Made by a program: the position numbers and the translations under genes. Shown here piece by piece: positions 1,642-12,494 of a stretch of DNA of 64,000 nt. Below the pieces are notes generated by a model that was not told the DNA's origin, searched no databases, and was given only the letters and a program-made list of their open reading frames with translations. The stretch comes from Plantactinospora mayteni (GTDB lineage Bacteria > Actinomycetota > Actinomycetes > Mycobacteriales > Micromonosporaceae): the NCBI RefSeq assembly GCF_016862935.1, contig NZ_BONX01000045.1, positions 124,001 through 188,000 of the forward strand, read 5' to 3'. Positions within the stretch are counted from its first letter, which is position 1. Every line of letters starts with the position of its first letter.

Positions 1642-4600
1642 TCACCGGGAGCCGGCCGGTTCGGCGAGCAGATCGGCGAGCAGATCGGCGACGGCGGATG
1701 CGGTCATCGGATGCGTGTGCAGCAGCAACGCCGCCTCGCTCGACCGCGCCCCGGCCGCAGGTGACCCGGCCGACTGCCAGCCGGTATCGCAGCCGAGCAG
1801 CTCGGCCACGGCGTCGCAGGTGGCCGGATGGTCACGAAGCAACCCGACAAGCGGCCCGGACGCTGACACCGGCAGGCCCCCCGCCCCGGCGTCCGGCACC
1901 GCCGAGGCGGGCCCGGTGGCGTCCGGTGACCACGGCGGCACCCAGGCGTCGAGCGCGGCGAGACCGGCCGGGAACGTCCGGCCCGCCTCCCGGACCAGCA
2001 GCGGTACGAGTTCCGGCGCCTGCTCCCGCAGCGTCGTGATCAGCTTGGGCAGCCAGGGCAGCAGCACCGGATCGGGCAGCCGGGCGAACGCCTCGGAGAT
2101 CACCTCCACGACGAACGGGGCCAGCGACGGCACCGGCTCCAGCGCCTGTACGAAGCCGCTCAGATAGTGCGGGAATGCCGGCACGACCAGCGGATTCGTC
2201 AACAGCTCGGCACAGCGGGACCGGAGTTGCGCCACCGAGAGCAGCCCCAGTTGGGACTGGGCGGCCCAGAGCAGCGCCACCTTTGCCGGGGCCTCCGGGT
2301 GCGACTGCCGCACCGCCAACTCCAGTTGGGCACGGTCGCAGCCGAGGGACAGCGCCAGGCTCTCCATGGAGAAGAGGAAGCCGAGCATCGCCCCGACCTG
2401 GCGTACGCCGGTCTCGTCGTCCACGAACGCGGTCGGCAAGAGGGTGCAGTAGTGCGCGTACCCGGTGGTGACGAAGGACTGGCACCAGGCCGGCAACTCC
2501 GGCTCGGTGTTCCGGTAGTGCGCCAGCAGCCGGCGGATCCGGCGCAGCACCTCGGGCGCGTCGTCCACGGTGCGCTCGGCGGAGAGGAGATCGACGGCCC
2601 GCCCACCGAGTTCGTCGACGAACCGCCGGCTGGGCAGGAACAGGATCGCGTCCTCCACCGCCGCCAGTGCGCCCGCGGCGGTGGCGTCCGGCGCCCAGAC
2701 CGAGCGACGCAGCCGCTTCTCCAGCACCTGCTCGACGGTGATGCCCTCGTAACCCAACTCGATCACCGCGCGCTGGTGCCGCCCCAGGCCGAGATCCCAG
2801 CTCTCCTGGATGGAGCGCTCACCGAGCCGCCGCTCCCCCATGATCGGCCGGACGACTCCGTCGGGCAGCAGGCGGTGCAGCACCCAGAGCAGGTCCGAGC
2901 AGGGCACCTGCTCCGGGTGGGCGGTCAGGTCCAGCAGGGCCCGCTGGATGGTACGGGCCTCCAGGGCCAGTCCCAGCGGGGCGAGCCGGTCGAAGACGTC
3001 CCGGGCCAGCGGCGGCAGGGCGTCGTAGCCCACCTGGCCGATCCGGTCGCCGCCGAGCAGGATGTCGCAGAGCCGGCGTACGTCCCGACGGCCGGGGACG
3101 ACGTCCTTCTCGATACAGGTGACCGCCGCGTCCGAGAAGTCGTAGGGCGTGGGCCGGGCCCGGTTGCGGATCCCGGCCAGCAGGATCGAGGTCTCGAAGA
3201 TGGCGATCGCGTCGGCGGTGCTGGCCAGGTAACCGTTGCGGCGGGCCAGCCGCACGATGTCGACGCACCAGGCGAGCAGTTCCGCCTCGTCGACCTCGTC
3301 CAGCACCGGCGGCCGGGACAGGAAGCCGGAGAGCCGGTCGGCGACCGGTGCCGGTGCCGCCGGTGCCGCCGCCTGCTTCTTCGCCCTGCCCCGCTTCCGC
3401 CCCGCCGGCTGCCCCACCAACTGGTACGGCGTGACGCCGCCCCGGCCGACCGCCTTCGCCCAGCCTGCCTGGGCGATCGACACCGAGCCGGGAGCCAGGT
3501 CGAACTGCCGCTCGATCGCGGAGTGGCTGGACGGGATGAGCCCGTACAGCCAGCGGGTGCCGGTGCGTGGGCTGATCTCCCAGTCGGGTGTGCCGGGTGC
3601 GGTGCCGAACTCCTCGACCGGGCTGGCCGCGTGGAAGGCGCCGCAGACGTACAGGCAGCGTGACCGGTCGACGCCGGACGCCGCCATGTGCTGCCGCATC
3701 CGGGTCCACATGTAGCGCTCGCGGTCCTCGTCACGGTCGTCGCGGCCGGAGTCGGCGGGTGGGCGCAGTCGGCGGAACAGGCTGCCGATCAGCACCATCA
3801 CCTGCCGGTACGTGTCGTAGTCGGCGTCGGCGAGCGGCTGCTCCACGTACTGGTCCCACCACTCGGACCAGTGCCGCACCTTGCCGTGGTGCAGCAGGTA
3901 GGACCGGAGTTCGGCGAACCGGGGCCGCAGGTCGCCCATGCCGATCCCGACCGCCTCGCCGTGCAGCGCCGCCTCCTCCGCCGGCTGCCCACCGGGGTCG
4001 TCCGGGGCGGCGTCGGTGTCGGCGGACTCCGGACCGGCGTCGGCCGCCGGATCGGACGACTCGGTGGGCGTCCACTGGAACACGTGGTCCGCCGACCGGT
4101 CCACCAGGACGAGTTCGACGCCAGGGGTGTCCAGCGCGTACGCGATGGCCTGGTATTCCGCCGACGCCTCGCTGATCGGGGCGACGATGTTGAGCGGTGC
4201 CCAGGCCGCCGGGAATCCGTCCAGTTCGGACGCGAACGCCTGCACCGCCACCGGCAGCCGGCAGTTGCGCAGCTCCTCCAGCAGCGGTCGCAGGTCTTCG
4301 CACAACTCCAGGTAGATCACCGCAGGCTGCTTCTCCCGCAGCCGGCGGGCCATCGCCAGCGCGGCGGCGGGTGAGTGGTGGCAGACCGGGAAGATCTCCA
4401 GATCCTCCCCCAGCGCCCGGTCGACGTCGTCGACGATGCCGGTGAGGATCTCGGCCACCGCGTCCGGACCGCCGGCGAACGTGGTCGCCGCCGACCGCAA
4501 CTGCTCACGCAGCGGGGCGAAGGTGCCCGGAGCGGAGATGCCCGGAGCGGAGATGCCCGGAGCGAAGGTGCCCGGGACGGAGGTGCCCGGGACGGAGGTG

Positions 4601-4683
4601 CCCGGGACGGAGGTGCCCGGAGCGGAGATGCCCGCCGACCGGTCCGGGGCCTCGACCCCGGACGCGTCCACTTCAGTGCTCAT
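1642..4683 (-). CDS. DUF5682 family protein, last gene of the SWIM/VWA/MoxR operon
   Basis: A 1013-residue cytoplasmic protein of the type called DUF5682, which I recognise by its neighbours and by its N-terminal half. Residues 18-57 are a low-complexity (APGxS/VPGTS) repeat. Then come VCHHSPAAAL and VIYLELCEDL near 100-130, and CLYVCGAFHAAS near 345, a pattern that resembles the TraB/EreA/ChaN-like fold (inference). The C-terminal 550 residues are helical and unassigned. It starts at ATG 4683, overlapping the stop of the AAA+ gene by 4 bp, so it is translationally coupled. Proteins of this kind travel with MoxR ATPases and VWA proteins. They may be the client or effector of that chaperone pair; the biochemical role is unknown. 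Confidence 0.8.
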   Translation of the reverse strand: MSTEVDASGVEAPDRSAGISAPGTSVPGTSVPGTSVPGTFAPGISAPGISAPGTFAPLREQLRSAATTFAGGPDAVAEILTGIVDDVDRALGEDLEIFPVCHHSPAAALAMARRLREKQPAVIYLELCEDLRPLLEELRNCRLPVAVQAFASELDGFPAAWAPLNIVAPISEASAEYQAIAYALDTPGVELVLVDRSADHVFQWTPTESSDPAADAGPESADTDAAPDDPGGQPAEEAALHGEAVGIGMGDLRPRFAELRSYLLHHGKVRHWSEWWDQYVEQPLADADYDTYRQVMVLIGSLFRRLRPPADSGRDDRDEDRERYMWTRMRQHMAASGVDRSRCLYVCGAFHAASPVEEFGTAPGTPDWEISPRTGTRWLYGLIPSSHSAIERQFDLAPGSVSIAQAGWAKAVGRGGVTPYQLVGQPAGRKRGRAKKQAAAPAAPAPVADRLSGFLSRPPVLDEVDEAELLAWCVDIVRLARRNGYLASTADAIAIFETSILLAGIRNRARPTPYDFSDAAVTCIEKDVVPGRRDVRRLCDILLGGDRIGQVGYDALPPLARDVFDRLAPLGLALEARTIQRALLDLTAHPEQVPCSDLLWVLHRLLPDGVVRPIMGERRLGERSIQESWDLGLGRHQRAVIELGYEGITVEQVLEKRLRRSVWAPDATAAGALAAVEDAILFLPSRRFVDELGGRAVDLLSAERTVDDAPEVLRRIRRLLAHYRNTEPELPAWCQSFVTTGYAHYCTLLPTAFVDDETGVRQVGAMLGFLFSMESLALSLGCDRAQLELAVRQSHPEAPAKVALLWAAQSQLGLLSVAQLRSRCAELLTNPLVVPAFPHYLSGFVQALEPVPSLAPFVVEVISEAFARLPDPVLLPWLPKLITTLREQAPELVPLLVREAGRTFPAGLAALDAWVPPWSPDATGPASAVPDAGAGGLPVSASGPLVGLLRDHPATCDAVAELLGCDTGWQSAGSPAAGARSSEAALLLHTHPMTASAVADLLADLLAEPAGSR
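4516..4635 (-). repeat. Eight tandem 15-bp units inside the DUF5682 gene
   Basis: Eight back-to-back 15-bp units of the form RRCGRAGRTGCCCGG (plus-strand reading) occupy exactly 120 bp. Three central units are identical (4576-4620), as are two flanking ones (4531-4560). They encode five-residue APG(I/T)(S/F) or VPGTS units. The unit length is a multiple of three, so copy changes alter only linker length. Confidence 0.95.
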
Positions 4684-5792
4684 GAGAGCGTGGCGATCGC
4701 CTCACGACCGCCCTCCAGGAACTCCGGCCAGGATCCGCCGTCGGCCTTGCTGCGCGGCTCGACCACGCCGTGCCAGTACTTGTTCAGGATCGCCAGGTCC
4801 TCCGGGGCGCGTCGGGCCAGCGAGCCGACCAGCGAGCCGGCCAGCGTCGCGGCCCGCAGGGTCCGGTCGCCGAAGAACTGGCTGTGCAGGATCGCGTCCT
4901 CGAGTACCCCGATCTGTTCGGCGGTGGAGAGCGCCGACTCCAGCTTCTCGTCGTCGCTGCCGGCCGCGGCTGCCGCCGCCCGCAGGTCGGCGAAGCTCTG
5001 CAACAGGATGTCCAGCAGCGTCGGCGGCACCTCCAGCTCGATCCGGTGCCGGCGCAGCAGTTCGGTGGTACGGAACCGGACGATCTCGGCCTCGCTGCGC
5101 TTGTTCGTCACCACGGGGATGCGGACGAAGTTGAATCGACGCTTGAGTGCCGAGGAGAGGTCGTTCACGCCCCGGTCCCGGCTGTTCGCGGTGGCGATGA
5201 TCGAGAAACCGGGCTGGGCGAAGACGATGTTGTCGTCGTCCAGCTCCGGAATGGAGACGTACTTCTCGGAGAGGATGGAGATCAGCGCGTCCTGCACGTC
5301 GCTGGTCGACCGGGTCAGCTCCTCGAAGCGCCCGACCACGCCCTGCTCCATCGCGGTCATGATCGGCGACGGGATCATCGACTGCCGGGACTGGCCCTTG
5401 GCGATCACCATCGAGACGTTCCACGAGTATTTGATGTGGTCCTCGGTGGTGCCGGCGGTGCCCTGCACCACCAGGGTCGAGTTGCGGCAGATCGCGGCGG
5501 CGAGCAGTTCGGCGAGCCAGCTCTTGCCGGTACCGGGGTCGCCGATCAGCAGCAGGCCCCGGTCCGACGCCAGGGTCACGATGCTGCGCTCGACGAAACT
5601 CCGGTCGCCGAACCACTTCTGCGGGATCTCCCGGTCGAGGCCGTCGGCCCGCTCGGAGCCGAGCACGAAGAGCCGGACCATCCGCGGGCTGAGCCGCCAG
5701 GAGAACGGCTTCGGGCCGTCGTCGACCGACTCCAGCCAGTCGAGTTCCTCGGCGTACTTCACCTCGGCGGGGGCACGCAACACGTCGGTCAT
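4680..5792 (-). CDS. MoxR-like AAA+ ATPase
   Basis: A 370-residue AAA+ ATPase of the MoxR/dynein-like group, expected to form hexameric rings that remodel or activate a partner VWA protein. Walker A is GDPGTGKS at residues 84-91, followed by a Walker B/linker region near VGRFEEL, sensor-1 IIATANSRDRG, and an arginine-finger-like ALKRRF. The length matches the family. The ATG at 5792 lies 12 bp after the VWA gene stop, and its own stop overlaps the DUF5682 start (ATGA). The gene order VWA-MoxR-DUF5682 supports a chaperone-substrate complex. What it acts on is not visible from sequence. Confidence 0.9.
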   Translation of the reverse strand: MTDVLRAPAEVKYAEELDWLESVDDGPKPFSWRLSPRMVRLFVLGSERADGLDREIPQKWFGDRSFVERSIVTLASDRGLLLIGDPGTGKSWLAELLAAAICRNSTLVVQGTAGTTEDHIKYSWNVSMVIAKGQSRQSMIPSPIMTAMEQGVVGRFEELTRSTSDVQDALISILSEKYVSIPELDDDNIVFAQPGFSIIATANSRDRGVNDLSSALKRRFNFVRIPVVTNKRSEAEIVRFRTTELLRRHRIELEVPPTLLDILLQSFADLRAAAAAAGSDDEKLESALSTAEQIGVLEDAILHSQFFGDRTLRAATLAGSLVGSLARRAPEDLAILNKYWHGVVEPRSKADGGSWPEFLEGGREAIATLS

Positions 5793-5804
5793 TCGGTGGG
5801 TCTC

Positions 5805-7370
5805 CTAGCTGAGGAAGTTCTTGAGTTCGAACACGAGCTTGCGGATGTGGCCGGAGAGGACCGGCGCACCGAGATCCTTGAAACGCTGCCGGAACCACGG
5901 GTTCACGCTCTGCTGGCCGCCGCTGCTGACCGAACCGACCGGGATCACCCGTACCCCGCTGCGGTGCGCCGCCGCCAGACCGTCGAAGACACCCTGTGGA
6001 TCCGACTCGTAGTAGTCCGAGATCCAGACGAGTACGGTGTTGCGCGGCTCGGCGATCTTGGGCCGAACCAGGGTGAGCGCGGCCGTCCCGTTCGTCCCGC
6101 CACCCAACTGGGTACGCAGCAGCACCTCGAACGGGTCGTGCACCCACGGCGTCAGGTCCAGTGCCCGGGTGTCGTACGCGACCAGGTGCACGTCGACCTT
6201 GGGCAGCCCGGCGAAGATCGAGGCCAGGATGGTGCAGTTCACCATCGCGTCCACCATCGACCCGGACTGGTCCACCACCACGATCAGCCGGGCCGGGGTG
6301 GTCCGCCGCGCGGTCTGCCGGTAGTAGAGCCGGTCGACGTAGAGCCGCTGGTCCTCCGGGCTCCAGTTGGTGAGGTTCTTCCAGATGGTCCGTTCGATGT
6401 CGAGGTTGCGGAACACCCGCTTCGGCGGCACCGATCGGTCGATGGTGCCGACACTCGTCTTCTCCACCTGCGTACGCAGCACCTCGGCGACCTCGTCGAC
6501 AAACCGCCGGATCAGCGCCTTGGCGTTGGCCAGCGCCACGCCCGACAGGTTGTGCTTGTCCCGCAGCAGTTGCTCGATCAGCGACATGCTCGGGGTCAAC
6601 TTGCTGGCCAGCGCGCTGTTGCCGAGTACCTCGCGCAACTGCATCCGGCGCACCAGGTCGCCTTCCAACCCGGCCAGTACCCCGGCCAGTTCGCCGGTGC
6701 CGGGCAGCGTGCCGCCCGGCTGGCGGGTGGCACCGGGCCGACCGCCGCGCAGTTGCCCCGGCTCCAGCCCGAGCGCCTGCTCGAACCAGCCGGCGTCGGA
6801 CTGCCAGCGGGCCAACTGGCCGGCGGTGACGTTGCCCGAGCCGGTCGCGAAGACGTTGAGCAGCAGCTTCGACACCAGGGCGGCCCGGCGAACCTCAGCG
6901 TCGCCGACCCGCTCGTCCGGACCCTGGTCGACATCGTCCGGACTTCCGTCGACCTCGCCCGGACCCTGGTCGACGTCGTCCGGGCTCTCGTCGACCTGGG
7001 TGGGTTCGGTGGTGTCGGCCGAGGGCTGGTCGGGCCGGACCGCCGCACCGCCGGCCGATCCTGTCGGGTCCGGCTCGTCCACCGGCCCGGCGGCACGGCC
7101 GTCGGCCGCCTCGTCGGGCGGCGGTGCCATCAGGTCGCGCAGATCGTCGGCCAGGTCGGGGAAGCGCTGCACGATGGTGTCCACCGAGACCGTCGGATCC
7201 AGCAGCGCCGCCGGCAGGCCGAGGTCGTCGACGATCGCCACGCTGGCCGACTCCAGCGCCGGCTGCTCGTCCGCGTCGAAGAGCCGGGCCAGCAGGCGCC
7301 AGTAGAGCACCTGTCGCCGGTTCTCCTGAGCCCGCGCCGTGACGCTCGGACGTCCACTGTGCTCGTTCAT
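5805..7370 (-). CDS. VWA domain protein with intact MIDAS
   Basis: A 521-residue protein with a C-terminal von Willebrand A domain from about residue 360. The MIDAS motif DQSGS is at 367-371, a GGTNGT threonine loop follows, and the third aspartate is in WISDYYE, so metal-dependent ligand binding is probably intact. Residues 1-80 are helical. Residues 85-155 are an acidic, repetitive linker in which SPDDVDQGP occurs twice. A helical middle domain precedes the VWA. The ATG at 7370 overlaps the upstream gene stop by 4 bp. MoxR ATPases are typically paired with such proteins; here it is most likely the MoxR partner. Confidence 0.9.
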   Translation of the reverse strand: MNEHSGRPSVTARAQENRRQVLYWRLLARLFDADEQPALESASVAIVDDLGLPAALLDPTVSVDTIVQRFPDLADDLRDLMAPPPDEAADGRAAGPVDEPDPTGSAGGAAVRPDQPSADTTEPTQVDESPDDVDQGPGEVDGSPDDVDQGPDERVGDAEVRRAALVSKLLLNVFATGSGNVTAGQLARWQSDAGWFEQALGLEPGQLRGGRPGATRQPGGTLPGTGELAGVLAGLEGDLVRRMQLREVLGNSALASKLTPSMSLIEQLLRDKHNLSGVALANAKALIRRFVDEVAEVLRTQVEKTSVGTIDRSVPPKRVFRNLDIERTIWKNLTNWSPEDQRLYVDRLYYRQTARRTTPARLIVVVDQSGSMVDAMVNCTILASIFAGLPKVDVHLVAYDTRALDLTPWVHDPFEVLLRTQLGGGTNGTAALTLVRPKIAEPRNTVLVWISDYYESDPQGVFDGLAAAHRSGVRVIPVGSVSSGGQQSVNPWFRQRFKDLGAPVLSGHIRKLVFELKNFLS

Positions 7371-8782
7371 CGCCGCAGCAACCGTCCCGCCCGCTCGCGG
7401 AGTACGGCCACCGCGTCGCCGGACTTCGCCTCCGTCTTGACCACCTTGGGATCGGTGGGGCCGAGCGCCCAGTCTCCGGTGTGCGCCTCCGCCGTCGCGC
7501 GTTTCACGGTGTAGCGCACCGCGAGTGGTTGCAGCAGCCAGCGGCCGGCGTCCCAGCGGAGCAGGCCGAGACAGGCCGACGACCGGGCCACCAGTTCCGG
7601 GGTCAGCGGCGCGCAGGCCGGCAGCCGGGACACGTCGACCGGAAGGGACTGCCCACCGACCTCCAGGGTGAGCCCGCCCCGATCGTCGGTGACGGCCGAA
7701 TAGTCCTCGATCAGGACGGGCTCGGCGATGCGTACCGGATGGCGGTCCAGTGGTGGGGCCGCCGGGGCGACCGCCTCGGGCAGCCGGAGCCGGGCGGTGG
7801 CGAACGGGTCGGCCGGCTCGGCCGGCCGGGCCTGGTCGTCCCGCCAGAGCAGGTCACCACCGGGCAGCAGCGGCAGATCGATGATCTCCACGGCGTGCCG
7901 CCGGGCGAGCGCGCCGAGCAGCACCCGGTGGCCGGCGAGCAGTCGCCATACCGCCGGGCCGACGATGGTCTCCACCTTCGCCGCGGAGACGCTGGTCCGG
8001 ACCAGCCGGGGCGGGGCGCCACCGGCCGGTTCGAGTATGGCGTGCACCTGCACCTGGATCGCGGTGCCGTGCTCGTGCACGTCGGCGCCGAGCGGCAACA
8101 GCCGCCCGGAGACCGTGCCGGCGGCGGCCAGCGCGTCCGGCCGGCCGCCGGGCTGGGCCAGCAGCAGGCCCCGGGCCCACAGGTCGGCCCAGCGCCGGGC
8201 CGGGAGCCGCTCCATCGTCGCCACCGGGCAGCATCCGCGCAGCTCGGCCGCCAAGCCGTCGAGCAGGACCGCCAGCCGGCGGAGCGACGGCACGGCCAGC
8301 GCCGCGTCGAGGGTCTGCGCCGAGGCGGCGACCAGGTCGTGGTCGACGCCGCGCCAGCCCGCGATGGCCAGCTCGCGCAGCCACGACCGGCACCCGGCCA
8401 GTACGTTGTCCGGCGCCGACGCCCCCGGATCGGTCGGCGCGGCTGCCTCCCAGTCCGCACGGGACCGGCCGAGCGCGGTGTCCAGTCGGACGAGCAACGC
8501 GTCGTGCACGGCGCCGAGCAGTGCGGCACGCCCGCCGGCCAGCGCGGTCAGGTGCTCGTCGGCGAGCGAGCCCGCGACCACCTTCTCCACGGCCTCCCGC
8601 ACCCGGTCACCGAGCGGCGTCACCGCGAGGGCGTCGGCCAGCGCGGTCAGCGCCGCCCGGGGCTGCTCACCCAGCCGGGCGAAGCCGTGGGTGAAACTGT
8701 CGTCGAAGCCGCCGACCAGGTCGAGCGCCTCCTCGATCCCGGGCTCGACGGCGTCGAGCCCGGCCAGTTGGGTAGCGAGCAT
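7367..8782 (-). CDS. Unknown protein of the SWIM/VWA/MoxR operon
   Basis: A 471-residue protein that I do not recognise. It is helical, without membrane segments or a signal peptide. There is a short CRSWLREL segment, CCP in the middle, and a more beta-rich C-terminal third. I chose ATG 8782 because it overlaps the stop of the SWIM gene by one base (TGATG), and the frame further upstream is arginine/proline-rich noise antisense in character. The 3' end overlaps the VWA start by 4 bp. Strict coupling on both sides says it is an obligate component of this operon, perhaps a scaffold for the zinc-finger protein. Confidence 0.8.
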   Translation of the reverse strand: MLATQLAGLDAVEPGIEEALDLVGGFDDSFTHGFARLGEQPRAALTALADALAVTPLGDRVREAVEKVVAGSLADEHLTALAGGRAALLGAVHDALLVRLDTALGRSRADWEAAAPTDPGASAPDNVLAGCRSWLRELAIAGWRGVDHDLVAASAQTLDAALAVPSLRRLAVLLDGLAAELRGCCPVATMERLPARRWADLWARGLLLAQPGGRPDALAAAGTVSGRLLPLGADVHEHGTAIQVQVHAILEPAGGAPPRLVRTSVSAAKVETIVGPAVWRLLAGHRVLLGALARRHAVEIIDLPLLPGGDLLWRDDQARPAEPADPFATARLRLPEAVAPAAPPLDRHPVRIAEPVLIEDYSAVTDDRGGLTLEVGGQSLPVDVSRLPACAPLTPELVARSSACLGLLRWDAGRWLLQPLAVRYTVKRATAEAHTGDWALGPTDPKVVKTEAKSGDAVAVLRERAGRLLRR

Positions 8783-9285
8783 CAGTCGACCGTCCCCATC
8801 GCCGGAAACCAGTGCAGTTCGGGCAGTGGCTCGGTGCTGCCCGGCACCTCGAGGTAGGCCAGGTGCCGCAGGAAGCGGCTGAAGACCACGGCCGCCGGCG
8901 TCGGCTCGTGACCGCCGTCGAGCCGGGCCGCCAGGTCGGCACCGGAGGACGCCCCGTCGGCCACGTCGATCCGCAGGTAGCGGGCGACCCGCTCGACGCC
9001 GTATTGCAGGGTGGCCTCGTCCAGCAGGGCGTGCAGGTGCTTGCAGGGCGCGCCCCGCAACCCGCCGCATGGACGGTTGTTGTTGGTACTGCAATTGAAG
9101 GCGTGGCTGCCGGCGGCGATCGACGAGACGTAGACCCGTTCGATGTCCGAACCGCTCGACACGACGCCCTGCAACCGCCCGTCCGCCAGCTCGACGAAGG
9201 GCACCTTCGCCAGCTTGCGGGGCTGCACCGCCGGCAGCACCCGGGCGACGCTACGCCGCTCCCACCCGACCTCGATCGTTCCCAC
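8782..9285 (-). CDS. SWIM zinc-finger protein, first gene of the operon
   Basis: A 167-residue protein with a SWIM-type zinc motif: Cys65, Cys73, then CKH at 81-83 with Cys81 and His83 as the last ligands. The spacing between the first two cysteines is longer than the usual CxC. SWIM domains bind DNA or protein. I chose GTG 9285 because a purine-rich GAGAGGGG lies just upstream and homology-like sequence (GTIEVGWERR) begins there; an upstream extension to 9504 reads through repeats and looks non-coding. It leads a five-gene operon with TGATG coupling to the next gene. It may recruit the machine to nucleic acid; this is inference. Confidence 0.8.
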   Translation of the reverse strand: MGTIEVGWERRSVARVLPAVQPRKLAKVPFVELADGRLQGVVSSGSDIERVYVSSIAAGSHAFNCSTNNNRPCGGLRGAPCKHLHALLDEATLQYGVERVARYLRIDVADGASSGADLAARLDGGHEPTPAAVVFSRFLRHLAYLEVPGSTEPLPELHWFPAMGTVD

Positions 9286-9330
9286 GACCCCCGCCCCTCT
9301 CGTTCGATGCCCCGAGAAGATAGACGGACG

Positions 9331-9475
9331 CGGCGACATTTTCCGCCCACCCGGACGGAACCGCTGGACACGGGGCGCGGCGGCATTTTCCACCCCGACG
9401 CAGGAGAGCGCCGGACACCGAAGCGCGGCGGCATTTCCGCCCCGCCGGGGGAGAGCGCCGGACACCGAAGCGCGG
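9331..9475. repeat. Three degenerate 47-50 bp tandem repeats upstream of the SWIM operon
   Basis: Copies at 9331-9380, 9381-9428 and 9429-9475 share CGGCATTTTCC at the left and CCGGACACCGAAGCGCGG at the right. The last two copies are nearly identical in their right halves. They fill the leader region between the SWIM gene start and the neighbouring ABC permease stop. They could be regulatory or simply expanded sequence. Confidence 0.75.
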
Positions 9476-9532
9476 TGGCCCGCACCCGGGGGCGGGACGG
9501 GCAACCGCCGTCCCGCCCCGGGGCCAACCTGC

Positions 9533-10372
9533 TCAGTCGGCGCTGCGGGCCATCGCCCGTACCCCGACGGTCAGGCCGACGGCGGCGGTGACCAGCGCCG
9601 CGACCCAGCCCCAGAGCACGGTCATGGAGCCGATCTCACCGGCGAACAGGGCGCGCTCGGCGTCGACCAGATAGGCCAGCGGGTTGACCTGCGAGGCGAC
9701 GCGCATCCACCCCGGGCCGGTCTCCAACGGCAGCAGCATGCCGGAGAGCAGCATCAGCGGGAAGATCAGCGTCTGCTGCACCACCCAGAACATCCAGTCC
9801 TGCTTGCGTACGGCGATCGCGAGCGAATAGCTCAGCGCGCCGAGCCCGACGCCGAAGACCGCGAGCAGCGCCAGCCCGAGCAGCGCGCCGACCGGATACA
9901 GCCGGAAGCCGAACGGGATCATCACCAGCACGATGATCACCGCCTGCCCGGCCAGCGGCACCATCTCCTTCAGTGCCCGGCCGACCAGCAGCGACGGGCG
10001 GGACAGCGGGGTGACCAGCATCCGCTCGTGTGCACCGGTCTGGAACTCGAAGAGCAGGTTGGCACCGGTTGCCGAGGTGCCGAACAGGGCGGTCATCACC
10101 AGGATGGCCGGTACGAACCACTGCCACACGCCGCCCGCGCCGAAGGCCGTACCGGCCTGGCCGCCGAGCGAGCCGACCAGCAGCGGGCCGAAGAGGCCGA
10201 GGAAGACCAGCGGCTGCACCATGCCGAAGACGACCGAGAACGGGTCGTGCCGCAGCGGGCGCAGCTCGCGGGTCAGTACGATGCCGACGTCGCGGAGCAG
10301 CCCGAGTGGACCGGTCCGGGTTCTCGCCGCTACGGGAGTCGGCGACGGGGCGGTGGCACCGATGGTGGTCAC
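9533..10372 (-). CDS. ABC-2 type permease (DrrB-like drug exporter subunit)
   Basis: A 279-residue integral membrane protein of the ABC-2 family, with about six hydrophobic segments after a roughly 35-residue cytoplasmic N-terminus. Sequence such as LLVGSLGG and GVWQWFVPAILVMTALFG is typical of DrrB/daunorubicin-resistance permeases. It is expected to form the membrane channel for the ATPase encoded just upstream, whose stop it overlaps by 4 bp (ATGA). The likely role is export of a hydrophobic compound or antibiotic; the substrate is unknown. The divergent WYL regulator gene probably controls the pair. Confidence 0.9.
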   Translation of the reverse strand: MTTIGATAPSPTPVAARTRTGPLGLLRDVGIVLTRELRPLRHDPFSVVFGMVQPLVFLGLFGPLLVGSLGGQAGTAFGAGGVWQWFVPAILVMTALFGTSATGANLLFEFQTGAHERMLVTPLSRPSLLVGRALKEMVPLAGQAVIIVLVMIPFGFRLYPVGALLGLALLAVFGVGLGALSYSLAIAVRKQDWMFWVVQQTLIFPLMLLSGMLLPLETGPGWMRVASQVNPLAYLVDAERALFAGEIGSMTVLWGWVAALVTAAVGLTVGVRAMARSAD

Positions 10373-11382
10373 GGGACGTCCTTCCGGGTCTGCGAATCCT
10401 GCGGGCTGTCCTGCGCGGTCGGAGTCTCCTGCTCGGCCTCGCGCAGGCTGCGGCCGGTGAGGGTGAGGAACACGTCGTCGAGGGTGGGTTGGTGCGCCTG
10501 GGCGGTACCGACCCGTACGTCGGCTTCGATCGCGGCCCGGAGCAGTTCCGGCAGCGCCGCCGGCCCGTCGGCGACGTGCGCCTCGACCCGGGACCCGGCG
10601 CAGACCAGGTCCCGGGCTCCGGGCAGCCGGTCGACGAGCCGGGCCAGCGGCCGGGCGTCGTCCCCGGCGACGGTGACGACGATCCGGTCCCCGGCGAGCT
10701 TCGCCTTCAGCGCCGCCGCCGAGTCGTCGGCGATGATCTCGCCGTGGTCGACGATGACGACCCGTTCGGCCATCGAGTCCGCCTCGTCCAGGTAGTGCGT
10801 GGTGAGCACCACCGTCATCGCGGCCTCGGCGCGCATCCGCAGGATGTGTTCCCAGAGGTTCGCCCGGTTCTGCGGGTCCAGCCCGGTGGAGGGCTCGTCG
10901 AGGAAGAGCAGGGACGGCGCGTGTACCAGGCCCATCGCCACGTCCAGCCGGCGACGCTGCCCGCCGGAGAGGGCCGAGACCTTCCGGTCGGCGAGGTCGG
11001 CGAGGTCGAGGCCGTCCAGCAGGTCGTCGGCCCGCCGCCGGGCGGCACGCCGGTCCAGGCCGTAGATCGCGCCCTGGGTACGCAGTTCGTCGCGGGCCCG
11101 CTGGGTGTGCCCGGCCCCGTTGCCCTGGCCGACGTACCCGATGTGCCGGCGCACCTTCCCGGGTTCGCGTACGACGTCGTGGCCGGCGACGGTGGCGGTG
11201 CCGGAGGTCGGCGCGATCAGGGTGGTGAGCATCCGCATCGTGGTCGTCTTGCCGGCGCCGTTCGGGCCGAGTAGCGCGACCAGTTCGCCGGGCTCGATCC
11301 GCAGGCTGATGCCCCGGACGGCGTGCACGGTCTGGCTGCGGCTCACCACGAAATCCCGGGTGAGCGAGCGGGCGTCGATCAT
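10369..11382 (-). CDS. ABC ATPase (DrrA-like drug exporter subunit)
   Basis: A 337-residue ATPase. Walker A is LLGPNGAGKTTT near residue 36, the signature is ALSGGQRRR, and Walker B is LLFLDEPSTGLDP. The C-terminal 90 residues form the DrrA-type extension that ends in LDDVFLTLTGR. It energises the permease encoded directly after it. The ATG at 11382 faces the WYL regulator gene across a 98-bp divergent gap, which suggests coupled control. The family exports hydrophobic drugs such as anthracyclines; the substrate here is not known. Confidence 0.92.
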   Translation of the reverse strand: MIDARSLTRDFVVSRSQTVHAVRGISLRIEPGELVALLGPNGAGKTTTMRMLTTLIAPTSGTATVAGHDVVREPGKVRRHIGYVGQGNGAGHTQRARDELRTQGAIYGLDRRAARRRADDLLDGLDLADLADRKVSALSGGQRRRLDVAMGLVHAPSLLFLDEPSTGLDPQNRANLWEHILRMRAEAAMTVVLTTHYLDEADSMAERVVIVDHGEIIADDSAAALKAKLAGDRIVVTVAGDDARPLARLVDRLPGARDLVCAGSRVEAHVADGPAALPELLRAAIEADVRVGTAQAHQPTLDDVFLTLTGRSLREAEQETPTAQDSPQDSQTRKDVP

Positions 11383-11480
11383 TCGTTGCTCCCCGGTCGG
11401 AGGGTCGGTCGTCTCATGCCCGGAACGCTAGGCGGCATAGCGGTCACTTTCTGGCCTGAATGTCGGGCAGACTTGTCGGC

Positions 11481-12494
11481 ATGGCGAACACCAGCTCCCG
11501 AACCCTCCGCCTGCTCTCGCTGTTGCAGACCCACCGCTACTGGCCCGGTACCGAACTCGCCGACCGACTCGACGTCTCGGTCCGTACCCTCCGCCGCGAC
11601 GTCGACCGGCTGCGCGAACTGGGCTACCCGGTCGAGGCGCACCGGGGCGTCGACGGCGGCTACCAGCTCGCCCCGGGCGCCGCACTGCCCCCACTGGTGG
11701 TCGACGACGAGGAGGCGGTCGCGCTCGCCGTCGGGTTGCAGGCCGCCGCGCACGGTGCGGTCGCCGGCATCCAGGAGTCGTCGATCCGGGCGTTCACCAA
11801 GGTCGTACAGGTGATGCCGGCCCGGCTGCGGCGTCGGGTCGACGCGCTGCGCGCGATGACCGTACCGGGGTTCTGGGGCGACGGCGGCGGGCCGACCGTC
11901 GAGGCGGCAACCCTCACCACCGTCGCCCAGTCCTGCCGGGACACCGAACGCCTGCGGTTCGGCTACACCGCCCGGGACGGGCAGCGGACCGAGCGGCACG
12001 TCGAGCCGTACCGGCTGGTCTCGCTCGGCCGGCGGTGGTATCTGGTCGGCTACGACCTGACCCGGCACGACTGGCGCAGCTTCCGGCTCGACCGGCTGCA
12101 CGACCCGCGCGGCACCGGGGCCCGGTTCCACCCCCGGCAACTGCCCGCCGAGGACGCCGCCGCGTTCGTCCGGGCCGGGATCGAGAACCTGCCCGCGCCG
12201 TACCGGGTGGAGGTGCTGGTGCGGGCACCGCAGGCCACCGTCGAGGAGCGGTTGGCCCGCTGGGCCACCGTCGAGTACGTCGACGAGCACCGCTGCCGGA
12301 TGGTGATGACCACCGACACGCTGGACTGGCCGGTCATGGCGCTCGGCTCACTCGGCGCGGAGTTCGAGGTGCTCTCCCCACCCGAGCTGGTGGACCAGCT
12401 CCGGGAGTGGAGCGACCGGTTCCGGCGCGCCACCGCGACCGGCCCGGCGGGCCGCCGCGACGGCGATGGCCGCACTTCGGACCCGGCGAGTTGA
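11481..12494 (+). CDS. WYL-domain transcriptional regulator (YafY-like)
   Basis: A 337-residue regulator with an N-terminal winged helix-turn-helix (residues 1-60, DVSVRTLRRDVDRL as the recognition part) and a WYL domain (RWYLVGYDL near 180) that binds small ligands in this family. A C-terminal extension follows. I prefer ATG 11481, directly before the conserved helix; an in-frame ATG at 11460 would add seven residues. There is little Shine-Dalgarno sequence, so it may be leaderless. It is divergent from the DrrAB-like exporter, the usual arrangement for a ligand-responsive repressor or activator of an efflux pump. Confidence 0.9.
   Translation: MANTSSRTLRLLSLLQTHRYWPGTELADRLDVSVRTLRRDVDRLRELGYPVEAHRGVDGGYQLAPGAALPPLVVDDEEAVALAVGLQAAAHGAVAGIQESSIRAFTKVVQVMPARLRRRVDALRAMTVPGFWGDGGGPTVEAATLTTVAQSCRDTERLRFGYTARDGQRTERHVEPYRLVSLGRRWYLVGYDLTRHDWRSFRLDRLHDPRGTGARFHPRQLPAEDAAAFVRAGIENLPAPYRVEVLVRAPQATVEERLARWATVEYVDEHRCRMVMTTDTLDWPVMALGSLGAEFEVLSPPELVDQLREWSDRFRRATATGPAGRRDGDGRTSDPAS

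What the first reader, a model, noticed from the sequence alone, without database searches (positions are those of the whole stretch)
1642..9285. Five-gene coupled operon: SWIM finger, unknown protein, VWA, MoxR AAA+, DUF5682
The sequence shows five genes joined by one-base or four-base overlaps (one 12-bp gap). MoxR ATPases with VWA partners are known remodelling machines, and related MoxR-VWA sets have been proposed as conflict or stress systems. Here a SWIM DNA/protein-binding module leads, and a 1013-residue TraB/EreA-like protein ends the set. The combined function is not established, and the 471-residue component is unrecognised.
Basis: partly seen in the sequence, partly recalled or inferred. 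Interest (0 to 1): 0.75.

Follow-up and report, generated by a model that had tools for sequence, protein, structure and literature searches.

The report
DNA-damage-linked MoxR-VWA protein-remodelling operon
Five tightly linked actinobacterial genes form a conserved protein-remodelling machine, a relative of an uncharacterised E. coli operon, and the DNA switch in front of them looks like the one that turns on DNA-repair genes, which gives this unexplained family a testable job.

Summary
The five genes are real, overlap as described, and form a sharply bounded unit. All five occur in the same order in 79 of 80 loci found with the 471-aa protein (the 80th ends at a contig edge) and in 11 of 11 found with the MoxR protein (at least three are shared). 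MoxR, VWA and DUF5682 are homologous to E. coli YehL, YehP and YehM: the core is known but functionally uncharacterised. New: a published LexA/RecA-independent DNA-damage promoter (RecA-NDp/PafBC, tTGTCRgtg-8nt-TannnT) sits before the operon, exact in 22 of 81 upstream regions against 0 of 709 control genes. Three other YehL-type lineages carry it too: 21 of 21 loci in one family hold an exact site. The window's own site has two mismatches, but keeps the core found before recA, uvrA and uvrB in the same genome; 31 of 80 loci lack that core. The 471-aa protein is predicted to end in two OB folds (modest scores). Best reading: a DNA-damage-induced MoxR/VWA remodeller aimed at nucleoprotein complexes. 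There is no wet evidence; the target is inferred.

The parts
9317..9338 (-). Putative PafBC/RecA-NDp-type promoter TGTCGCCG-8nt-TATCTT, 53 nt before the SWIM-like gene
   Evidence: Core TGTC-N12-TAnnnT matched exactly; 2 mismatches to the full consensus. Same core near the starts of recA, uvrA, uvrB of this genome, 3 of 3; control 2 of 709. Block conserved by eye in L008 and, more loosely, L011.
8782..9285 (-). SWIM-like zinc-finger protein, 167 aa
7367..8782 (-). 471-aa protein: helical N-terminal half, predicted tandem OB folds at about 215-434
5805..7370 (-). VWA (CoxE-type) protein, YehP family, 521 aa
   Evidence: Pfam VWA_CoxE 104.7 bits; YehP 31% id, E 6e-44; profile probability 100%; D367-x-S369-x-S371 and D452 invariant in 81
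4680..5792 (-). MoxR AAA+ ATPase, YehL subfamily, 370 aa
   Evidence: Pfam AAA_5 124 bits; YehL 40% id, E 3e-82 against RavA E 0.21; P-loop G87, G89, K90, S91 invariant (D85 and T88 in 80 of 81) and E157/E158 invariant
1642..4683 (-). DUF5682 (YehM family) protein, 1013 aa, C-terminal alpha-solenoid
   Evidence: Pfam DUF5682 97.7 bits; profile vs YehM family 99.7%, E 4e-26 over 535 columns; invariant CHHSP, E126, E129-D130, H351; model from 50 of 80 sequences, pLDDT 70, pTM 0.47, solenoid part high

Best explanation
This is an actinobacterial lineage of the YehL-type MoxR/VWA/DUF5682/SWIM system. It lacks the DUF4132/WGR partner, and its zinc-finger targeting part is usually encoded as two genes (SWIM-like 167 aa and 471 aa). 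It belongs to the PafBC (LexA/RecA-independent) DNA-damage regulon: ssDNA made by damage activates PafBC, which switches the operon on (inferred from the promoter). The SWIM-like and 471-aa proteins, the latter with predicted tandem OB folds, then recognise DNA or a DNA-bound complex (inferred). The VWA protein grips a peptide of the target and the MoxR hexamer uses ATP to remodel or release it (described for other MoxR-vWA pairs, PMC7159879 passage; inferred here). DUF5682 acts as scaffold or possible hydrolase (inferred).
For: Core homology to YehL/YehP/YehM by BLAST and profiles. Natural fusion of SWIM and 471 in L143, 1 of 11 loci. Promoter: in 300 nt before SWIM, 22 of 81 exact and 20 more with one mismatch; controls 0 exact and 1 with one mismatch of 709 flanking genes, Markov about 0.1 of 81 with <=1 mismatch, antisense 0 exact and 2 with one mismatch of 80. 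Exact sites elsewhere in the 80 loci: 2 in 1.63 Mb, both strands. Three further lineages: 21 of 21 YehL-type loci of genomes in family f4 (3 of them window-type) hold an exact site before the operon or in the divergent MoxR/SWIM gap; the six f4 genomes counted have 47-70 exact sites each. Validity of the motif: exact site before recA in 5 of 5 whole recA loci (a sixth, broken recA was not scanned), and in G023 before uvrA, uvrB, an O6-methylguanine-DNA methyltransferase and a sliding-clamp paralogue. Window genome: recA, uvrA, uvrB share the same core, 3 of 3. In L126 the first gene behind the site is WGR-DUF4132; WGR is known from PARP-type damage proteins (recalled). A 927-kb Streptomyces plasmid has the same five genes and an exact site 66 nt upstream.
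Confidence: 0.6

Rival explanations
1. Enzyme-maturation chaperone: like NorQ/NorD or CoxD/CoxE, the MoxR/VWA pair inserts a metal or activates one client enzyme; the damage promoter only reflects that the client is needed under stress.
For: VWA is CoxE-type; NorQD acts in metal insertion (starts of the abstracts of PMC9976466 and PMC13036017). A 2Fe-2S protein gene (Fer2/Fer2_2; of the xanthine-dehydrogenase kind by recall) lies 3.2 kb away.
Against: Among flank genes called by a simple gene finder no family is in more than 13 of 80 loci, so no client enzyme travels with the operon; RavA, GvpN and MadB are not matched. A client elsewhere in the genome is not excluded.
Confidence: 0.2
2. Anti-phage or other conflict system, using DNA damage (ssDNA) as the trigger.
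For: Patchy distribution: 12 of 148 class genomes; presence on a Streptomyces plasmid, two genes away from an N-6 DNA methylase gene; MoxR-vWA conflict systems are described (PMC7159879, passages).
Against: No VMAP or known effector domain among the Pfam hits; PADLOC shows only weak matches; no phage-record copy of DUF5682 and no viral-contig copy of MoxR. Defence genes in the flanks were not scanned.
Confidence: 0.14
3. The upstream motif is a generic or differently regulated promoter (for instance ClgR) and not a PafBC damage promoter.
For: ClgR was also reported to recognise this promoter (PMC5656591, passages); one paper suggested that the M. smegmatis motif is not conserved in S. venezuelae (PMC9380542, passage).
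Against: Exact sites are rare (47-70 per genome in six f4 genomes, reversed-pattern control 0-3) and sit before recA, uvrA and uvrB.
Confidence: 0.15

Closest known systems
E. coli K-12 yehI-yehL-yehM-yehP-yehQ
   Same: MoxR (YehL), DUF5682 (YehM), VWA (YehP) and a SWIM protein (YehQ) in one cluster; three of the four are homologous by profile
   Different: Gene order; E. coli has DUF4132 YehI upstream; YehQ is one 614-aa protein with two SWIM stretches and no detectable sequence homology to SWIM+471. How the E. coli genes are controlled was not established here
Actinomycete YehL-type lineages found here (L126/L132; L117-L121 type; L127/L133/L136 type)
   Same: MoxR and VWA homologues with SWIM-type proteins and an exact RecA-NDp site; DUF5682 shown by Pfam in L132 and L133
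   Different: MoxR only 44-49% identical; with WGR/DUF4132 (L126), with a protein of about 1,680 aa plus DUF4132 (L117), or divergent with DUF5691 (L133). DUF5682 was not detected in the L117 type with the window's profile, which also missed L133
NorQ/NorD and RavA/ViaA (MoxR/VWA pairs)
   Same: AAA+ MoxR with a VWA partner; expected peptide-gripping and remodelling
   Different: RavA is not matched (E 0.21); NorQ/NorD were not compared directly; no DUF5682 or zinc-finger partner known to me (recalled)
vWA-MoxR-VMAP ternary conflict systems (PMC7159879)
   Same: vWA and MoxR as the switch
   Different: No VMAP among the Pfam hits of the five proteins

Membership tests
YehL-type MoxR system | MoxR ATPase closest to YehL | tested here: met
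   YehL 40%, E 3e-82; RavA E 0.21; profile 100%. Other MoxR subfamilies were not compared
YehL-type MoxR system | YehP-type VWA partner | tested here: met
   E 6e-44; profile 100%, E 2e-46
YehL-type MoxR system | DUF5682 (YehM) partner | tested here: met
   Pfam 97.7 bits; profile 99.7%
YehL-type MoxR system | SWIM protein homologous to YehQ | tested here: inconclusive
   Four invariant Zn-type ligands; weak profile match of SWIM to the L133-type SWIM family (probability 22%, single-comparison E 1e-3); none to YehQ
YehL-type MoxR system | DUF4132/WGR protein (present in E. coli and some lineages; not universal) | tested here: not met
   None of the five is DUF4132; no flanking family in more than 13 of 80 loci. 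No DUF4132 among the three L133 proteins scanned either
PafBC / RecA-NDp regulon | tTGTCRgtg-8nt-TannnT promoter | tested here: met
   Family level: 22 of 81 exact, 42 of 81 with <=1 mismatch, vs 0 and 1 of 709. Window itself: core exact, full consensus 2 mismatches; 31 of 80 loci lack the exact core
PafBC / RecA-NDp regulon | PafBC-dependent induction by DNA damage | not testable with these tools
   Needs expression data
vWA-MoxR-VMAP ternary systems | VMAP component | tested here: inconclusive
   No VMAP family among hits at E<=1 in the five proteins; bpMoxR only E 0.09, 12.3 bits against cut-off 27. I did not check that Pfam holds a model for each VMAP type
RavA/ViaA | RavA-type MoxR and ViaA-type VWA | tested here: not met
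   RavA E 0.21; ViaA vs VWA E 4.1
MADS / GvpN | NCBIfam MadB or GvpN equivalog score | tested here: not met
   MadB 38.1 bits against 475; GvpN 42.2 against 266.8
TraB/EreA/Tiki-like hydrolases | Fold and catalytic residues of that superfamily in DUF5682 | tested here: inconclusive
   Invariant CHHSP...E..ED...H fits a recalled motif; N-terminal model is low confidence; no PDB sequence match and fold rows cover the solenoid only
Tandem OB-fold ssDNA-binding proteins (RPA70, SSB) | Two OB folds in tandem in the 471-aa protein | tested here: inconclusive

The most novel reading that the evidence does not exclude
YehL-type systems are bacterial extraction machines for proteins stuck on DNA (crosslinked or stalled topoisomerase, polymerase or repair complexes). 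They are switched on by ssDNA through PafBC, aimed by a SWIM/tandem-OB reader, driven by MoxR/VWA as unfoldase, with DUF5682 as hydrolase or scaffold: a functional counterpart of p97/SPRTN. E. coli yehILMPQ would be the same machine under other control.
Probability: 0.22. Interest if true: 0.88.

Novelty: new variant of a known kind. Interest (0 to 1): 0.63.

Why it matters
The YehL subfamily of MoxR ATPases is named in print (PMC3893208, passages), but no function for yehL, yehM, yehP or yehQ turned up in the listings of the searches made (two of these lists were cut). Finding that four actinomycete lineages of this system carry a DNA-damage promoter turns an open question into a direct experiment: induce with mitomycin C, delete, test survival. 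It also puts an unrecognised protein with predicted tandem OB folds beside an AAA+ machine, which would be a new kind of repair or nucleoprotein-remodelling module if shown.

Tried and rejected
SWIM+471 as a split YehQ in sequence: position and the fused form in L143 suggest one functional unit, but hhalign found no homology to YehQ or to the L004-type SWIM family, while the same method found MoxR, VWA and DUF5682 at once. The idea that the split is a frameshift or assembly error was rejected: separate in 80 of 80 loci.

Molybdenum/xanthine-dehydrogenase link: dropped, because flanks are not conserved (a simple GC-based gene finder, 915 flank genes).

Phage or viral origin: no match for DUF5682 in phages or for MoxR in viral contigs. 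Plasmids: DUF5682 in 5 of 72,556 records, one of them chromosome-sized at 11.85 Mb. PHROGs, four proteins given, MoxR not: only a VWA family of unknown function (E 2e-40) and one marginal match.

LexA-type boxes in the E. coli yeh region: 11 with up to one mismatch, 8.2 expected by chance, so uninformative. Solved relatives: none for the A1 or A2 profiles or the VWA protein; MoxR finds only midasin. The DUF5682 fold search matched only the alpha-solenoid; other folds are not excluded. Mycobacterial MoxR1, MoxR2 and a von Willebrand protein fall 1.6- to 1.7-fold in an M. smegmatis pafBC mutant (PMC5656591, passages); whether they are of the YehL kind was not tested, so this was not used.

Limits: of 38 distant YehL-type places (44-49% identity) I looked at 20-kb neighbourhoods of 30; 8 were not fetched. 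Outside family f4 exact sites were not seen in the distant loci fetched; some one-mismatch sites were, e.g. at the SWIM starts of L124 and L130. The 709 control genes are what remained of 915 after leaving out upstream genes within 1.2 kb of SWIM and those with under 200 nt of upstream sequence. The site rows were cut in the output. Of 52 exact sites in G023, 13 were printed with a downstream gene and six of those genes were run against Pfam. Structure predictions used 56 of 81 (A1) and 50 of 80 (A2) sequences. The SWIM/471 fusion is one case of 11. Three of the 11 MoxR-sampled loci lie on contigs of the same length as contigs among the 80 (L137/L041, L138/L069, L139/L081), so the two samples overlap.
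Full report
WHAT IS THERE. Five minus-strand genes run from 9285 to 1642: SWIM-like (167 aa), 471-aa protein, VWA, MoxR, DUF5682, with a 1-base overlap, a 4-base overlap, a 12-base gap and a 4-base overlap. Pfam names the last three and nothing for the first two. The SWIM-like protein has C65, C73, C81 and H83 in 81 of 81 sequences, a zinc-ligand pattern ending in CxH like SWIM, but Pfam's SWIM model does not reach E 1. The active parts look intact: P-loop, Walker B acids and the VWA metal site are invariant or nearly so (motif names recalled).

IT IS ONE UNIT. A scan of one genome for each of 84,980 species with the 471-aa protein gave 140 relatives, of which the best 80 were kept; titles name mostly Streptosporangiales and Micromonosporaceae genera (grouping recalled). 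In 79 of 80 all five genes occur in the same order and strand; in the 80th the contig ends before DUF5682. Because that sample was chosen by one member, I also sampled by MoxR: 12 of 148 class genomes, the own one included, have a MoxR at least 89% identical, and the 11 others have the five genes in order, 11 of 11. Flanking genes change from genome to genome: the commonest flank family, with a simple gene finder, is in 13 of 80 loci. SWIM and 471 are separate in 80 of 80 loci, with the 1-base overlap in 70 of 80, but are one open frame of 670 aa in L143.

WHAT FAMILY. E. coli K-12 yehL-M-P-Q encodes MoxR, YehM, VWA and a SWIM protein, beside the DUF4132 gene yehI; Pfam finds DUF5682 in YehM. 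The window's MoxR matches YehL (40%, E 3e-82) and not RavA (E 0.21); VWA matches YehP (E 6e-44); DUF5682 matches YehM weakly by BLAST (E 4e-5) and clearly by profile (99.7%). The SWIM/471 pair stands in the place of YehQ but is not shown to be homologous. The same genome has a second, more distant system at C26 (MoxR 46% identical) with a VWA match and a protein with a SWIM-type motif by eye (relatives). The YehL subfamily is named in PMC3893208 (passages). I found no functional study of yehL, yehM, yehP or yehQ in the listings (40 of 650 papers listed; 25 of 53; 4 of 4): only mutations of yehM in copper-evolved E. coli (PMC12409786, passages) and a yehQ strain in a butanol screen (PMC6442406, passages).

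THE PROMOTER. Upstream of the SWIM gene a block of the form TGTCGGTG-8nt-TAAGTT recurs. It is the published consensus tTGTCRgtg-8nt-TannnT for LexA/RecA-independent damage genes (quoted from Gamulin 2004 in PMC5656591, passage), the RecA-NDp promoter through which PafBC activates its targets (PMC6789036, passages); PafBC is triggered by ssDNA (PMC11804915, start of the abstract and passages). In the 300 nt before SWIM: 22 of 81 exact, 20 one mismatch, 13 two, 26 three or more. Controls: 709 other genes of the same loci 0 exact, 1 with one mismatch, 17 with two; Markov shuffles 0.1 per 81 with one mismatch and 1.8 with two; antisense 0 exact and 2 with one mismatch of 80. Elsewhere in the 1.63 Mb of these loci there are 2 exact sites on both strands.

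THE OTHER LINEAGES. All 21 contain an exact site: before SWIM in the 3 window-type loci; before the DUF4132 gene in L126 (which also carries WGR), L132 and L117 and at the same distance of about 6 kb before MoxR in L118, L119, L121, L171 and L173; and in the gap between the divergent MoxR and SWIM genes in 10. Six of the ten genomes were counted: 47-70 exact sites each, reversed-pattern control 0-3, so about 0.1 per 20-kb stretch is expected. Three further exact sites in these stretches lie elsewhere (L142, L117, L170). The motif is valid there: exact before recA in 5 of 5 whole recA loci (the sixth genome's recA is broken over contigs and was not scanned), and among 13 sites printed for G023 there are recA, uvrA, uvrB, an O6-methylguanine-DNA methyltransferase, a sliding-clamp paralogue and ribosomal protein S6; the other printed genes were not identified. 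In the distant loci fetched outside f4 no exact site was seen.

THE WINDOW'S OWN SITE. TGTCGCCG-8nt-TATCTT at 9338-9317, 53 nt before the GTG, has two mismatches to the full consensus. In this genome recA, uvrA and uvrB also depart from the full consensus (recA by two, uvrA and uvrB by more at the core site) but keep TGTC-N12-TAnnnT, 3 of 3, as the only core match on the gene's strand in the fetched stretches of 5.0, 1.5 and 2.0 kb and near the gene's start; that core occurs in the 300 nt before 2 of 709 control genes and is exact at the window site. The block is conserved by eye in L008 and more loosely in L011. Against: 31 of 80 loci lack the exact core, and of the 11 MoxR-sampled loci 5 show no site with up to two mismatches in the stretch scanned.

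NOVELTY. The core is a known, uncharacterised kind. New here: the DUF4132-free lineage with two-gene targeting part and predicted OB folds, and the placing of four lineages in a DNA-damage regulon. Searches for prior mention showed none in what they listed; several lists were cut, and most subscription papers are not held.

Noticed in passing
G000:C22:41689-43566 (L161:450-2645, minus): recA of the window's genome looks interrupted by an intein: 731-aa frame with RecA in two pieces, a LAGLIDADG endonuclease (135 bits) and a below-cut-off intein-splicing match (30.7 against 35.8 bits).
   Followed up: partly
window 9329-9479: Tandem array, period 47, 3.2 copies, just upstream of the SWIM gene; its edge overlaps the putative promoter. 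L008 upstream does not show it by eye.
   Followed up: partly
Family f4 genomes, e.g. G023: 47-70 exact RecA-NDp sites per genome in six counted, before recA, uvrA and uvrB in G023. PMC9380542 (passage) suggested that the PafBC motif is not conserved in S. venezuelae; f4 is unnamed and its identity was not established, but if it is Streptomycetaceae this deserves a second look.
   Followed up: partly
L127, L133, L136: A divergent YehL-type locus with SWIM and MoxR back to back, an exact RecA-NDp site on the SWIM side and a one-mismatch site on the MoxR side; in L133 a DUF5691 gene follows SWIM.
   Followed up: partly
L117:3475-8526 and L004:4931-9856: Very large proteins (1683 and 1641 aa) without any Pfam family beside MoxR in a second lineage, in L117 preceded by a short DUF4132 protein.
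   Followed up: no
window 11460-12494: WYL/WCX regulator with a below-cut-off PafC-type HTH match (25.6 against 32 bits), beside an ABC transporter pair at 9533-11382.
   Followed up: no
L197 (NZ_CP023408.1): The five-gene unit lies on a 927-kb Streptomyces fungicidicus plasmid, two genes away from an N-6 DNA methylase gene; SWIM and 471 are annotated hypothetical.
   Followed up: partly
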